A model generated the notes under the pieces. The model was not told the DNA's origin. It ran no database searches and was given only the letters and a program-made list of their open reading frames with translations. The translations under genes were made by a program, and so were the position numbers. Shown piece by piece: positions 4,527-10,310 of a stretch of 64,000 nucleotides of DNA (position 1 is its first letter; every line of letters starts with the position of its first letter). The stretch lies in contig NZ_QHJG01000007.1 in NCBI RefSeq assembly GCF_003184185.1, positions 65,708-129,707 on the forward strand, written 5' to 3'. The stretch is from Legionella qingyii. Lineage in GTDB: Bacteria > Pseudomonadota > Gammaproteobacteria > Legionellales > Legionellaceae.

Positions 4527-5582
4527 TTAGTTAAATAGCTCGGAGGTTAATGCGGTACCTATAGCAATATTTTTTGTAGCTCGTTTTCCTAAAATTTCTT
4601 CATAAAACTTAGGTTTTAACCCATAACCAGGTCGAATGGAGCGGATATTTTCTGATGTAAAAACATCTCCGGCCTTCATGGGCTTCACAACGTACAACGA
4701 ACGGCGAAATTTAATATTATCTTGTTCACTTTGTTTTCTTGCATAAGTAACCTGTCCCAACGCAGACCATGCCACCTGACTATCTCTGCAAAGAGCAGCG
4801 AGTTCATCGGGTTCCAATGAAAAACTATCATCAGGCCCCCCCGCGGTTCTATCTAACGTAAAATGCTTTTCGATAATACATGCGCCTAAAGCGACGCTGG
4901 TAATTGCTGTTACATTATCTAATGTATGATCGGATAAGCCAGTAACTAAACCGAATCGTTCCCTCAGGTTTGGTAATGTTCGCAAATTATAATCTGCAGC
5001 AGGGGCTGGATAACCACTTACACAATGTAAAATAGCGAGTTGTTTACATCCGCCTTCTTTAGCAGCATTAATAGCTTCTTCAATCTCAAGTGCGTCTGCT
5101 AGTCCAGTAGATATAATCATAGGCTTACCTGTACTTGCCACATATTTGATGAGCGGCAAATCAATTGCCTCAAACGATGCAATCTTATAAGCAGGGGCAT
5201 TTAATGATTCTAAAAGGTCTACAGCTGTATTATCAAATGGCGAACTAAATATAGTGATCCCTATATCATGAGCGTAATCAAATAGCTCTTTATGCCAATC
5301 CCACGGCATATGCGCTTTTTCATATAACTGGTATAATGTAGTTCCCTGCCACAATCCTTCACGAATAAGAAATTCATCTGATTGGCAATTTATAGTAATG
5401 GTGTCTGGCTTATAAGTTTGTAGCTTAACTGCATGAGCTCCTGCATGTTTTGCTGCTTTAATCAAAGTTCGCGCATTCTCTATACGACCATTATGGTTAG
5501 CAGAAATTTCTGCAATGATGTATGGTGGTTGTTCTGCAGAAATGCGTCTACCATCTATTATTATTTCAGGATTATTATTCAT
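4527..5582 (-). CDS. pseI: Pseudaminic acid synthase
   Basis: PseI condenses 2,4-diacetamido-2,4,6-trideoxy-L-altrose with phosphoenolpyruvate to give pseudaminic acid. The 351-residue protein has an N-terminal NeuB TIM barrel (IIAEISANHNG, VKLQTY, PWDWHKELFDYA, FSSPFD, PAYKIASFE, IISTGLA, GLSDHT, EKHFTLDR) and a C-terminal SAF/antifreeze-like domain from about residue 290. The wording of these blocks is closer to my recollection of PseI than of sialic acid NeuB or legionaminic acid LegI. It starts 19 bases after pseH and should be cotranscribed with it. A tree with PseI, LegI and NeuB references would settle the stereochemistry. Confidence 0.88.
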   Translation of the reverse strand: MNNNPEIIIDGRRISAEQPPYIIAEISANHNGRIENARTLIKAAKHAGAHAVKLQTYKPDTITINCQSDEFLIREGLWQGTTLYQLYEKAHMPWDWHKELFDYAHDIGITIFSSPFDNTAVDLLESLNAPAYKIASFEAIDLPLIKYVASTGKPMIISTGLADALEIEEAINAAKEGGCKQLAILHCVSGYPAPAADYNLRTLPNLRERFGLVTGLSDHTLDNVTAITSVALGACIIEKHFTLDRTAGGPDDSFSLEPDELAALCRDSQVAWSALGQVTYARKQSEQDNIKFRRSLYVVKPMKAGDVFTSENIRSIRPGYGLKPKFYEEILGKRATKNIAIGTALTSELFN

Positions 5583-5601
5583 TCCGTTTAAACCGTCCTT
5601 C

Positions 5602-6120
5602 TTAATTATTCCATTCGTTCTTTAATAAGCCCAAACAAATGACTGCTTGATAATTTGTTCCGTCAAAATATTGATCTCGTAAAATACCTTCCTGTCGAAA
5701 TCCTAATTTTTCATGGAACTGCAGTGATCTTACATTAGAAGCAATAACATATCCCATCACTTTGTGTGTACCAAATGTGGAAAATGCATAATCTAATGCA
5801 TGCTTACCTAAAGCACGGCCCGTACCTTTAGGAGCATCAGGCGCTATATAAAATCCCCATTCGACAGGCAGTGTTGAGCAAGACCGAGCAAAATTTACAA
5901 AACCTACGGGGATATTATTCTCTTCAAAAATTAATAATTTTTTCTTATCATTTATTGATTCTTTTTCAAACCAAACTATATGTTCGTCTAAACTAATTTC
6001 ATGATTAGTATACATATACTGCCGAATATCGGGGTGATTGCGCCAATTTAATACCATCCGCAAATCATCACGAATCATGGGACGAATACCATATCTTTTC
6101 TGTTCCAGATTAACTAGCAT
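5602..6120 (-). CDS. pseH: UDP-4-amino-4,6-dideoxy-N-acetyl-beta-L-altrosamine N-acetyltransferase
   Basis: A 172-residue GNAT-fold acetyltransferase that adds the N4 acetyl group to the PseC product, using acetyl-CoA. It begins with RPMIRDDLRMVLNWRNHPDIRQYMY, typical of PseH/RimJ-like proteins. The acetyl-CoA loop is around APKGTGRALGKHAL, and SLQFHEKLGFRQEG is the usual GNAT motif B region. The length fits PseH. It sits between pseG and pseI, completing the pathway. A generic RimI/RimL-type function is the alternative, but the surrounding five pathway genes argue strongly for PseH. Confidence 0.87.
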   Translation of the reverse strand: MLVNLEQKRYGIRPMIRDDLRMVLNWRNHPDIRQYMYTNHEISLDEHIVWFEKESINDKKKLLIFEENNIPVGFVNFARSCSTLPVEWGFYIAPDAPKGTGRALGKHALDYAFSTFGTHKVMGYVIASNVRSLQFHEKLGFRQEGILRDQYFDGTNYQAVICLGLLKNEWNN

Positions 6121-6200
6121 TTATTCTCCCTACCTGCTAAAAAACACTGAAAACCTTTGAACTATCCATCAACTTGATCAAGTTATATTGATGGTTATCA

Positions 6201-8142: not shown

Positions 8143-8145
8143 TGT

Positions 8146-9306
8146 TTACTCGTTTAATATTCTTTGCAAAGCATCAATTACTGTATCGTGCTGTTCGAGA
8201 GTCATCGATGAGTACATAGGTAAACTAATAGCTTCTGAATAATAATCTTCTGCCTCTGGAAAATGCTCTTTTTTAAAGCCCATTTTTTGGTAATATGGCT
8301 GACGATAAACTGGAATGTAGTGTAAGTTCACCCCAATGTTATTCTGCCTTAAAGCATCAAAAACCTGTCTATGCGTTAATTTGATACGATCTAGCTGCAA
8401 ACGGATCACATAAAGATGCCATGACGAATAACTGTTAGCATCCTGAAAAGGGCAAATTAAAGGTAACCCATCTAAAGACTGATTATAACGAGCAGCCAAT
8501 ACATGGCGTTGGGTTATAAACTGCTCTAATCGCTGCATTTGACTAAATCCTAGAGCCGCCTGAATGTCTGTCATTCTGTAATTAAAGCCCAAATTCAACT
8601 GCTGATAATACCATGGACCATCAGACTGTTGCGTCATTTTACCCTCATCGCGGGTAATCCCATGACTTCGCAACAAATTAATATATTCTGCATATACAGG
8701 ATTATTCGTCAGCACCATACCACCTTCTCCGGTGGTAATAATTTTAACAGGATGAAAACTGAAAATAGTAATATCACTATAACGACAGTTTCCTATCGTC
8801 TCATTTTTATAACGTCCTCCTATAGCATGAGAAGCATCTTCTATGATCTTAAAACCATAGCGCTGACTCAACCGATAAATAGTTTCCATCTCACAAGGTT
8901 GACCAGAAAAATGTACGGGAACCACAATTTTGGGTAAACATCCGTCTAATTCAGCCTGAATTAATTTATTTTCTAAGGCATGAATGCTGATGTTATAAGT
9001 GTTGGGATCTATATCTATAAAATCTACTTGCGCCCCACAATAAAGGGCACAATTTGCGGAAGCAACAAAAGTAATCGGGCTAGTCCATAACCAATCACCG
9101 GGCCCCAAATCTAAAGCAAGACAAGCAAGATGCAAGGCAGACGTTGCACTATTAAGTGCTATCGCATACTCAGCGCCGCAGTAATTACTAATTTCTTTTT
9201 CAAATATAGAAACGGCTGGTCCTTGAGTTAAATAATCCGATTTTAATACTTCAACAACCGCATCAATATCATCTTGTGTTATATTTTGGCGCCCGTATGG
9301 AATCAT
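8146..9306 (-). CDS. pseC: UDP-4-amino-4,6-dideoxy-N-acetyl-beta-L-altrosamine transaminase
   Basis: A PLP-dependent DegT/DnrJ-type aminotransferase that aminates C4 of the PseB product. The start MIPYGRQNITQDDIDAV is characteristic of PseC. The PLP lysine is K188 in FSFHPVKIITTGEGG, preceded by IIEDASHAIGG. The length of 386 residues matches the family. Its ATG shares one base with the pseB stop (TAATG), so the two are translationally coupled. A second DegT-family enzyme at 18872-20050 serves another sugar; this one is assigned to the pseudaminic path by its N-terminus and by its coupling to pseB. Confidence 0.9.
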   Translation of the reverse strand: MIPYGRQNITQDDIDAVVEVLKSDYLTQGPAVSIFEKEISNYCGAEYAIALNSATSALHLACLALDLGPGDWLWTSPITFVASANCALYCGAQVDFIDIDPNTYNISIHALENKLIQAELDGCLPKIVVPVHFSGQPCEMETIYRLSQRYGFKIIEDASHAIGGRYKNETIGNCRYSDITIFSFHPVKIITTGEGGMVLTNNPVYAEYINLLRSHGITRDEGKMTQQSDGPWYYQQLNLGFNYRMTDIQAALGFSQMQRLEQFITQRHVLAARYNQSLDGLPLICPFQDANSYSSWHLYVIRLQLDRIKLTHRQVFDALRQNNIGVNLHYIPVYRQPYYQKMGFKKEHFPEAEDYYSEAISLPMYSSMTLEQHDTVIDALQRILNE

Positions 9307-10310
9307 TAGTAAATACCCGATAAATGATTAAATTGTTTTATTTCATGAATATCTAGGAACTTCTCATTTGTTCCTGAATTATATTCAAAACCTTGTTGTA
9401 CTGGAGTTCCTTTTTCACCTAACTGATTTACTACAAAATCATTTTCACGTCCAAAAAAAGTGATAGTAGGTCTTAAAACATAATGATCTCTAAACTCTAA
9501 AGTAAGATGAGAGTCATCCGCAGGGCACATTATTTCATGTAATTTTTCACCTGGCCTAATGCCCATTATTTCAATAGGAAGTTCGGGAGCCATTGCTGTT
9601 GCTAAATCAACAATACGGATAGAGGGGATTTTAGGAACAAAAATTTCTCCACCGTGCATGCGGGCAAAATTATTTATCACAAAATCAACGCCCTGTTGTA
9701 GGGTAATCCAAAATCGAGTCATTCGTTCATCAGTAATAGGTAAATAACTTGCCTTCTCATCAATTAACTTTTTGAAATAAGGAACTACCGAACCACGGGA
9801 ACCTACTACATTACCATATCTTACTACCGCAAATCGGGTTCTATGCCCTCCTGAGATATTATTTGCGGCGACAAATAGCTTATCTGAAGCAAGTTTGGTA
9901 GCACCATATAAGTTGATGGGGTTTGCTGCTTTATCTGTTGAAAGTGCAATAACCTTCTCTACATTACTTTGTAATGCAGCCTGAATTACATGTTCTGCAC
10001 CATGGACATTGGTTTTAATACACTCCATAGGATTATATTCAGCTGCAGGAACTTGTTTTAATGCAGCGGCATGAATGACAAAATCTACATCTCTCATCGC
10101 TTGAGTTAGTCGCTGCTGATCGCGAATATCGCCAATAAAATAACGCATACACGCATGATTATAAATTTGCTGCATTTCAAACTGCTTCAATTCGTCACGC
10201 GAAAAAATAATTAATTTTTTGGGCTGGTAACGCTCCAAAAGAGTTTGTACGTATTGTTTTCCGAAGGAACCTGTTCCTCCAGTAATTAATATTGACTTAC
10301 CATTAAACAT
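9306..10310 (-). CDS. pseB: UDP-N-acetylglucosamine 4,6-dehydratase (inverting)
   Basis: PseB starts the pseudaminic path by dehydrating UDP-GlcNAc at C4/C6 and inverting C5. It is a soluble short-chain dehydrogenase of 334 residues. The NAD site is SILITGGTGSFGK. Other marks are GDIRDQQRL, HAAALKQVPAAEYNP, the catalytic STDKAANPINLYGATK block and VRYGNVVGSRGSVVP. It lacks the membrane region of PglF/WbpM-type retaining enzymes. I start it at 10310 because a GGAG site lies five bases upstream; an in-frame ATG at 10340 would add ten residues and overlap wecC. Confidence 0.92.
   Translation of the reverse strand: MFNGKSILITGGTGSFGKQYVQTLLERYQPKKLIIFSRDELKQFEMQQIYNHACMRYFIGDIRDQQRLTQAMRDVDFVIHAAALKQVPAAEYNPMECIKTNVHGAEHVIQAALQSNVEKVIALSTDKAANPINLYGATKLASDKLFVAANNISGGHRTRFAVVRYGNVVGSRGSVVPYFKKLIDEKASYLPITDERMTRFWITLQQGVDFVINNFARMHGGEIFVPKIPSIRIVDLATAMAPELPIEIMGIRPGEKLHEIMCPADDSHLTLEFRDHYVLRPTITFFGRENDFVVNQLGEKGTPVQQGFEYNSGTNEKFLDIHEIKQFNHLSGIY

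What the first reader, a model, noticed from the sequence alone, without database searches (positions are those of the whole stretch)
4527..10310. Complete CMP-pseudaminic acid pathway in a Legionella-like LPS locus
All six enzymes PseB, PseC, PseH, PseG, PseI and PseF are encoded together. L. pneumophila is known for legionaminic acid (via NeuA/NeuB/NeuC-type enzymes). A pseudaminic acid O-chain would give a different stereochemistry and surface charge and could be a serogroup or species marker. The genes lie among LPS export genes, not flagellar genes, which points to surface polysaccharide rather than flagellin glycosylation.
Basis: partly seen in the sequence, partly recalled or inferred. 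Interest (0 to 1): 0.8.

Follow-up and report, generated by a model that had tools for sequence, protein, structure and literature searches.

The report
Legionella surface sugar (pseudaminic acid) genes
A relative of Legionella gormanii carries every gene needed to make pseudaminic acid, a bacterial sialic-acid-like sugar, inside its surface-polysaccharide locus, and comparison with related species suggests that one exchanged gene block decides which of two closely related forms of that sugar is made.

Summary
All six CMP-pseudaminic acid (Pse) enzymes are at the stated place; each passes its own NCBIfam equivalog cut-off, while NeuB, LegB and LegC-type models fall below theirs. Of 30 sampled pseF loci, 24 have pseC directly beside it: 23 on one strand; the exception is L. 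gormanii. The window is about 94% identical to L. gormanii. The setting is a surface-polysaccharide locus (wecB, wecC, Wzz, Wzm/Wzt, PglC-type genes). The gene at 3352-4278 models as a GT-B fold closest to polysialyltransferase, a candidate pseudaminyltransferase.

PseI is over cut-off in 14 of 143 Legionellaceae genomes and already named so in NCBI for some Legionella. PseF was found in none of the three; L. gormanii has PseF and neither EpaA nor a close EpaB. I predict two Legionella chemotypes set by this swap. No chemistry was tested.

The parts
132..923 (-). PhyH-type dioxygenase-like ORF at the far end of the cluster, role unknown
   Evidence: PF05721 E 8.5e-9
920..2212 (-). membrane ORF430, candidate Wzy polymerase (weak)
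   Evidence: 9 TM-like stretches by a simple hydropathy count; no Pfam family at E<=1
2178..3359 (-). membrane ORF393, candidate Wzx flippase (weak)
   Evidence: 12 TM-like stretches; no Pfam family at E<=1
3352..4278 (-). ORF308, candidate pseudaminyltransferase of GT-B fold
4527..5582 (-). pseI, pseudaminic acid synthase
   Evidence: TIGR03586 506.9 bits, cut-off 340.25; tree
5602..6120 (-). pseH, N-acetyltransferase
   Evidence: TIGR03585 122.1 bits, cut-off 93.1; PDB PseH 4xpk best, E 8.8e-17
6201..7322 (-). pseG, UDP-sugar hydrolase
   Evidence: TIGR03590 314.5 bits, cut-off 153.55; PDB 3hbm (PseG) E 4.8e-15, the only match at E<=0.001
7323..7455 (.). 133-bp divergent spacer between pseG and pseF, where a promoter for each would have to lie; no site demonstrated
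   Evidence: coordinates; promoter-like matches in 7000-8500 no more than in shuffles: 4 against a mean of 5.7
7456..8142 (+). pseF, CMP-Pse synthetase, inverted relative to the rest
   Evidence: TIGR03584 335.7 bits, cut-off 205.7; orientation survey
8146..9306 (-). pseC, aminotransferase
   Evidence: TIGR03588 578.7 bits, cut-off 423.5
9306..10340 (-). pseB, inverting UDP-GlcNAc 4,6-dehydratase
   Evidence: TIGR03589 549.7 bits, cut-off 407.75; PDB 2gn4 E 3e-133
10328..11629 (-). wecC, UDP-ManNAc dehydrogenase, same gene string
   Evidence: NF008286 735.8 bits, cut-off 459
11635..12813 (-). wecB, UDP-GlcNAc 2-epimerase, same gene string
   Evidence: TIGR00236 493.6 bits, cut-off 210.15
12910..13353 (-). 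short Wzz-like chain-length protein
   Evidence: PF02706 28 bits, cut-off 25.5
15396..16724 (-). Wzz-like chain-length protein, 442 aa
   Evidence: PF02706 36.8 bits, cut-off 25.5
17257..18036 (-). Wzt-like ABC ATPase, export context
   Evidence: PF00005 72.1 bits; best NCBIfam model Wzt/RfbE 285.3 bits, below its cut-off 400
18027..18866 (-). Wzm-like ABC-2 permease
   Evidence: PF01061 48 bits
18872..21281 (-). PglE-, PglD- and PglC-like genes (aminotransferase, acetyltransferase, initiating sugar transferase)
   Evidence: the Pgl names are my reading of the families

Best explanation
The locus makes CMP-Pse5Ac7Ac and puts it on a surface polysaccharide (LPS O-antigen type). Steps: PseB dehydrates and inverts UDP-GlcNAc, PseC aminates, PseH acetylates, PseG removes UDP, PseI condenses with phosphoenolpyruvate, PseF activates with CMP; the neighbouring GT-B protein ORF308 transfers Pse onto a glycan that probably also holds ManNAcA (WecB/WecC). 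Shown here: identity of the six genes, their context, the predicted fold of ORF308. Inferred: the enzyme activities (known for these families), the transfer step, that the product stays plain Pse (no EpaA-EpaB found in the near relative L. gormanii), and that the polymer is the O-chain.
For: Six of six equivalog cut-offs passed. PseI clade with PDB 8h2c. PseB best PDB match 2gn4. Wzm/Wzt-like, Wzz-like and PglC-like genes in the same stretch. ORF308 is CMP-sialyltransferase-like in predicted fold. The block is kept at 90.4-94.5% identity in L. gormanii with full-length frames. L. gormanii has no EpaA match at E<=1e-20, while the three EpaA-type genomes give full-length ones in the same search; its best EpaB match is 29% identical, background for this SDR family, against 65-100% in those three; and it has no second NeuB-family synthase at E<=1e-40.
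Confidence: 0.85

Rival explanations
1. The final sugar is not plain Pse but a modified form (8-epimer, other N-acyl or O-acetyl), because tailoring genes lie elsewhere in the genome. This overlaps with the best explanation for the first six steps.
For: In Acinetobacter the 8-epimerase genes lie about 1.4 Mb from the K locus, in prophages (PMC12053666, abstract and passages). L. gormanii has an acyltransferase with an SGNH domain about 1.9 kb beyond the window's left edge (L109:5441-7423), which could O-acetylate.
Against: No EpaA and no close EpaB in L. gormanii. No whole genome is held for the window itself, so its own genome is untested.
Confidence: 0.15
2. Pse is made for flagellin glycosylation.
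For: Pse on flagellin is the best-known use of this pathway (recalled).
Against: No flagellar family in 46 of 58 window ORFs scanned; 0 of 13 Legionellaceae genomes have PF01973 at E<=1e-5, L. gormanii included (its controls ring only in archaea, so this is weak). The neighbours are polysaccharide genes.
Confidence: 0.04
3. The genes make legionaminic or sialic acid and are misnamed.
For: L. pneumophila makes legionaminic acid with NeuA/B/C-type enzymes (PMC3766260, passages).
Against: NeuB, LegB and LegC-type models fall below their cut-offs while all six Pse models pass; tree.
Confidence: 0.01

Closest known systems
CMP-pseudaminic acid pathway PseB-C-H-G-I-F (Helicobacter/Campylobacter type; names from NCBIfam and recall)
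   Same: All six enzymes, each over its equivalog cut-off
   Different: Set in a Legionella polysaccharide locus with wecB-wecC; pseF inverted
Homologous locus of Legionella (Fluoribacter) gormanii ATCC 33342
   Same: Colinear, 90.4-94.5% nucleotide identity, pseF inverted too
   Different: About 6-10% divergence; unaligned short spans near window 13.1-13.3 and 22.8-23.2 kb, and some 240 bases more in L. gormanii near window 16.75 kb
Loci of L. brunensis (L124) and two MAGs (L122 of G014; L138 of G095)
   Same: Same order wecC-pseB-pseC-X-pseG-pseH-pseI, with wecB in front in L124 and L138 (in L122's MAG a wecB-like gene lies apart, L121:7035-8210)
   Different: X is a CTP_transf_3 + aldo/keto reductase fusion followed by an SDR, not PseF
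EpaA-EpaB of Acinetobacter baumannii prophages
   Same: Domain layout and size of the L. brunensis pair: EpaA 542 aa (CTP_transf_3 5-192, Aldo_ket_red 239-525) against 547 aa (7-189, 246-531); EpaB 262 aa against 271 aa, adh_short_C2
   Different: Not found in window or L. gormanii; in Acinetobacter added to genomes with psaA-F, in Legionella standing in the place of pseF; sequence identity to the Acinetobacter proteins could not be measured here
GT38 polysialyltransferase and GT52 sialyltransferase
   Different: 14% identity, no Pfam family, H-R instead of H-P
L. pneumophila legionaminic acid locus; PseG of serogroups 6/12; Lpg0748
   Same: Same genus, same kind of locus; single Pse-type names occur (PseG in PMC3694923; Lpg0748 'pseudaminic acid biosynthesis ...?' in PMC5928044, one passage)
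   Different: NeuA/B/C type; [quoted passage not shown] pneumophila' (PMC3694923, passages)

Membership tests
CMP-Pse pathway | Inverting dehydratase PseB and aminotransferase PseC | tested here: met
   549.7 (cut-off 407.75) and 578.7 (423.5) bits
CMP-Pse pathway | PseH, PseG, PseI, PseF all present | tested here: met
   All four over cut-off
CMP-Pse pathway | Product is CMP-Pse5Ac7Ac | not testable with these tools
   Needs chemistry
Legionaminic/sialic acid synthase (LegI/NeuB) | Synthase over the NeuB cut-off or inside that clade | tested here: not met
   311.8 bits against 399.65; outside the 12-row Legionella NeuB-family clade (that this clade is LegI is inferred, L. pneumophila LegI was not in the tree)
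PglF/LegB retaining dehydratase | LegB equivalog cut-off | tested here: not met
   69.5 bits against 475; WlaL 117 bits against 447 for 2gn4. No PseB tree was built
EpaA-EpaB 8-epi-Pse cassette in the window | CTP_transf_3 + Aldo_ket_red fusion and SDR at the pseC-pseG place | tested here: not met
   tblastn of window 7000-8400: PseF, PseG, PseC; EpaB only at E 1.3, no EpaA row among the 30 printed. The rest of the window's genome is not held
EpaA-EpaB-like cassette in L. brunensis | Domain layout of EpaA and EpaB | tested here: met
   against PMC12053666
EpaA-EpaB-like cassette in L. brunensis | Sequence kinship to Acinetobacter EpaA | tested here: inconclusive
GT38/GT52 CMP-sialyltransferase (ORF308) | GT-B fold | tested here: met
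   (predicted model)
GT38/GT52 CMP-sialyltransferase (ORF308) | D/E-D/E-G and HP motifs | tested here: inconclusive
   DDG invariant in 34 of 34; the invariant histidine is followed by R, not P; motif rule from PMC4202792, passages
GT38/GT52 CMP-sialyltransferase (ORF308) | Pfam family match | tested here: not met
   0 families at E<=1e-3

The most novel reading that the evidence does not exclude
Legionella surface loci switch between two epimers of a sialic-acid-like sugar by swapping one cassette at a fixed place between pseC and pseG: stand-alone PseF gives Pse (window, L. gormanii), an EpaA-EpaB-like pair gives 8-epi-Pse (L. brunensis and relatives), with EpaA taking over CMP activation entirely. 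The inverted pseF of the window lineage marks a separate rearrangement at that place. Chromosomal polysaccharide loci of this kind could be the source of the genes that Acinetobacter phages carry.
Probability: 0.5. Interest if true: 0.6.

Novelty: new member of a known kind. Interest (0 to 1): 0.45.

Why it matters
Legionella gave legionaminic acid its name. A full Pse pathway in the L. gormanii lineage, with no NeuB-family match in the twelve next-nearest genomes searched, suggests that the charged surface sugar is exchanged between species by locus replacement. The PseF/EpaA exclusivity would let the stereochemistry at carbon 8 be predicted from one gene position, and it names organisms in which the rare 8-epi-Pse should be looked for outside Acinetobacter. 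ORF308 is a concrete candidate for a pseudaminyltransferase; only 3 papers of the held library use that word.

Tried and rejected
Legionaminic/sialic identity: rejected on cut-offs and tree. Invertible pseF (phase switch): the 7 inverted repeats found in window 7150-8400 are 10-13 nt; the one that brackets most of the gene (7451-7461/8071-8081) is not among the 6 listed for the L. gormanii stretch, and pseF has the same orientation in both, so no flipping device is claimed. EpaA/EpaB remnants beside pseF: none. EpaA in phage records: one partial weak match in 50,697 records; viral contigs: 224 pattern matches, none confirmed; plasmids: 91 records match, 4 over 80% or more of the query at 28-41% identity. 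An Acinetobacter phage SDR hit (H26) sits in a catabolic gene string, not beside an EpaA. EpaA in a phylum sample: 0 of 398 at E<=1e-60, without a positive control in that call. Marinovum algicola plasmid: an EpaA-like gene with an SDR gene in front, 4.5 kb from a 'pseudaminic acid synthase'; Maritalea: an SDR and a longer EpaA-like gene in a NeuB-family locus; consistent, not followed. L. dumoffii as the window's species: considered for its published LPS sugars; not shown. In PMC9879626 (passages) cap8E is listed for six L. dumoffii and two L. anisa isolates and not for the two L. gormanii isolates, which speaks mildly against it. First PseI tree had 44 rows; two rows scoring under 300 against the window protein (L093, L095) were dropped for the second (42 rows); L103 and L106 were in neither. 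Three literature queries were of little use.

Not in print, as far as searched: 'pseudaminic'+'Legionella' (40 papers, 30 listed), (16), 'Legionella dumoffii'+LPS (31, 15 listed), 'Legionella gormanii'+LPS (16, 15 listed), '8-epipseudaminic' (5), (26, 15 listed). By title and start of abstract none of the listed papers is about Pse made by a Legionella; I looked at passages of ten papers (92 again), read none whole, and only open-licence papers are held.
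Full report
Observation. Searches list six ORFs at 4527-10340. In one search each passes the NCBIfam equivalog cut-off of one Pse enzyme (PseI, PseH, PseG, PseF, PseC, PseB), while NeuB, LegB, LegC-type and FnlA models stay under their own cut-offs. Solved structures agree for PseB (2gn4, E 3e-133; WlaL, which I recall as PglF, 7e-33) and PseI (8h2c 'Pseudaminic acid synthase', E 5e-90; SpsE 1vli 8e-57; the sialic acid synthase 1xuu 2e-49). They are weaker for PseG (58.7 bits) and PseH (64.7 bits, only just ahead of a spermidine acetyltransferase at 56.7). 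For PseC the best chain is ArnB, and for PseF a chain named NeuA. PseB shows the stretch DKAANPINLYGATK, with the tyrosine that I recall as typical of the inverting type.

pseF is on the + strand, convergent with pseC (3 bp between the stop codons) and divergent from pseG (133 bp). In a phylum sample 40 of 398 genomes have PseF over cut-off; 30 of these 40 came as loci. In 24 of the 30, pseC lies directly beside pseF: 23 on one strand, one on opposite strands, and that one is L. gormanii (L153). Of the six others, three show no pseC in the 1.5-kb flanks (L147, L167, L172), one has it about 1.1 kb away on the same strand (L166), one has only a distant aminotransferase beside it (29%, L170), and one (L162) has pseF opposite in strand to pseB-pseC, but with pseB in between. 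So the usual order pseB-pseC-pseF-pseG-pseH-pseI is kept here with pseF turned round in place.

Organism. The type 2 IPP isomerase beside the locus is 96% identical to Fluoribacter (Legionella) gormanii and at most 92% to any other of the 80 loci listed. A 2.6-kb M1-peptidase gene (47085-49676) is 94% identical in G001 (L. gormanii); the best full match in the 44 other genus genomes is 86%. The locus aligns with L. gormanii in blocks of 90.4-94.5%. The window is thus a near relative of L. gormanii ATCC 33342; no whole genome is held for it.

Context. Around the block lie wecB, wecC, two Wzz-like proteins, Wzm/Wzt-like ABC genes, and PglC-, PglD- and PglE-like genes. To the right of about 22.6 kb lie mostly housekeeping genes (Rep-like helicase, Hsp33, BipA, NAD kinase, SpoVR, PrkA, M1 peptidase, FtsH and others). 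46 of the 58 ORFs of 100 aa or more were scanned, some without a family; no flagellar family came up. In L. gormanii the cluster goes on past the window's left edge with an asparagine-synthase-like and an acyltransferase gene (L109).

Distribution. PseI is over cut-off in 4 of 36 genomes reached from named loci (L. gormanii, L. brunensis, L. impletisoli, one MAG), 4 of 45 of the genus and 14 of 143 of the family. The twelve next-nearest genomes by IPP isomerase (L002-L013, among them L. bozemanae, L. anisa, L. parisiensis) have no match to the PseI model at E<=1e-40. For ten of the twelve I fetched 20 kb at this site: no PseI, and a gene set other than the window's, with some shared pieces (PglC/D/E-like genes in three; distant PseC- and PseH-like ORFs, 41% and 27%, in L. 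steelei L117). L. bozemanae and Legionella sp. PC1000 have a dehydratase-, RmlD- and 2-epimerase-like set. Names 'pseudaminic acid synthase' already stand in NCBI for L. israelensis, L. brunensis and L. jamestowniensis; a held L. jamestowniensis genome gave no match (G029), which fits exchange within species. In the PseI tree (42 rows) the window and L. gormanii join L. israelensis, the MAG, L. brunensis and L. jamestowniensis with support 89/100, inside a 12-row clade (99/99) with Pseudomonas, Stutzerimonas, Psychrobacter and Microbulbifer PseI and that of G095.

The swap. Of the 14 PseI-bearing family genomes, I looked at the surroundings of all 14. One (L. gormanii) has inverted PseF. The other ten hold more distant or cut-off clusters: two with PseF over 50% identical on the same strand as pseC (L140, L142), the latter directly beside it; one with a weaker PseF-like gene under the cut-off (L125); one with PseF but no pseB-pseC in the fetched 20 kb (L136); five with none recognised by a BLAST to the window's PseF (L126, L137, L139, L143 and the short L141); and L127, cut off by its contig end. 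The L. brunensis pair has PF02348 at 7-189 and PF00248 at 246-531, then PF13561. This is the layout reported for EpaA (542 aa; 5-192 and 239-525) and EpaB (262 aa, PF13561), shown by NMR in A. baumannii to turn Pse into 8-epi-Pse (PMC12053666, abstract and passages). PseF is found in none of the three at E<=1e-10. EpaA has no match in L. gormanii at E<=1e-20, while those three give full-length matches and six more distant clusters give partial ones at about 30% (9 of 13 genomes with any match). EpaB matches are 65-100% identical in the three and 29% in L. gormanii, the level of unrelated SDRs. L. israelensis also has an EpaA-like protein (P0160, 57%), on a contig of the same length as that of its PseI (P0002); the neighbourhood was not seen. 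Two of the three genomes are MAGs, so absence there is weaker than in L. brunensis.

Reading. Most likely the window makes CMP-Pse5Ac7Ac for a surface polysaccharide; that product is an ordinary member of a known pathway in a genus better known for legionaminic acid. The unexpected part is the exclusive exchange PseF / EpaA-EpaB at one site, which predicts Pse in the L. gormanii lineage and 8-epi-Pse in L. brunensis, L. israelensis and relatives. The activity of the Legionella EpaA-like proteins rests on domain layout, on their place in the operon and on the missing PseF, not on measured kinship to the Acinetobacter enzymes.

Published data. L. dumoffii LPS gave mostly quinovosamine after full acid hydrolysis (PMC7461559, passages); it neither supports nor refutes Pse in the window's lineage. 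For L. pneumophila the statement is that Pse has not been detected (PMC3694923, passages); Lpg0748 is glossed with a question mark as a Pse-type protein in PMC5928044 (one passage).

Noticed in passing
window 16744-16905, - strand: Remnant of a second wecB-like gene (37% identity over 54 aa, E 2.6e-8); L. gormanii keeps a 135-aa ORF there (L108:6721-7128, 42% to WecB over 44% of the ORF).
   Followed up: partly
L126, L137, L139, L140, L143: Legionellaceae pse clusters of a second kind, each with a 675-701 aa protein whose start resembles EpaA's cytidylyltransferase part at 29-31%; the one scanned (L126) goes on with a glutamate-1-semialdehyde-aminomutase-like domain. L. pneumophila serogroup 6/12 has PseG beside such an aminomutase gene (PMC3694923).
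   Followed up: no
L125:6403-7953, L126:9443-11038, L142:8109-9764: PseG proteins of 516-551 aa with an additional PseH-like match, perhaps PseG-PseH fusions.
   Followed up: no
L175 (Marinovum algicola plasmid pMaD10), 8090-16251: SDR and EpaA-like genes a few kb from a gene named pseudaminic acid synthase.
   Followed up: no
window 18872-21281: PglE/PglD/PglC-like genes beside Wzm/Wzt suggest a second amino sugar; copies of 73-90% identity lie near the IPP isomerase in the genomes of L007, L008 and L011 (L114, L115, L118), a patchwork pattern.
   Followed up: partly
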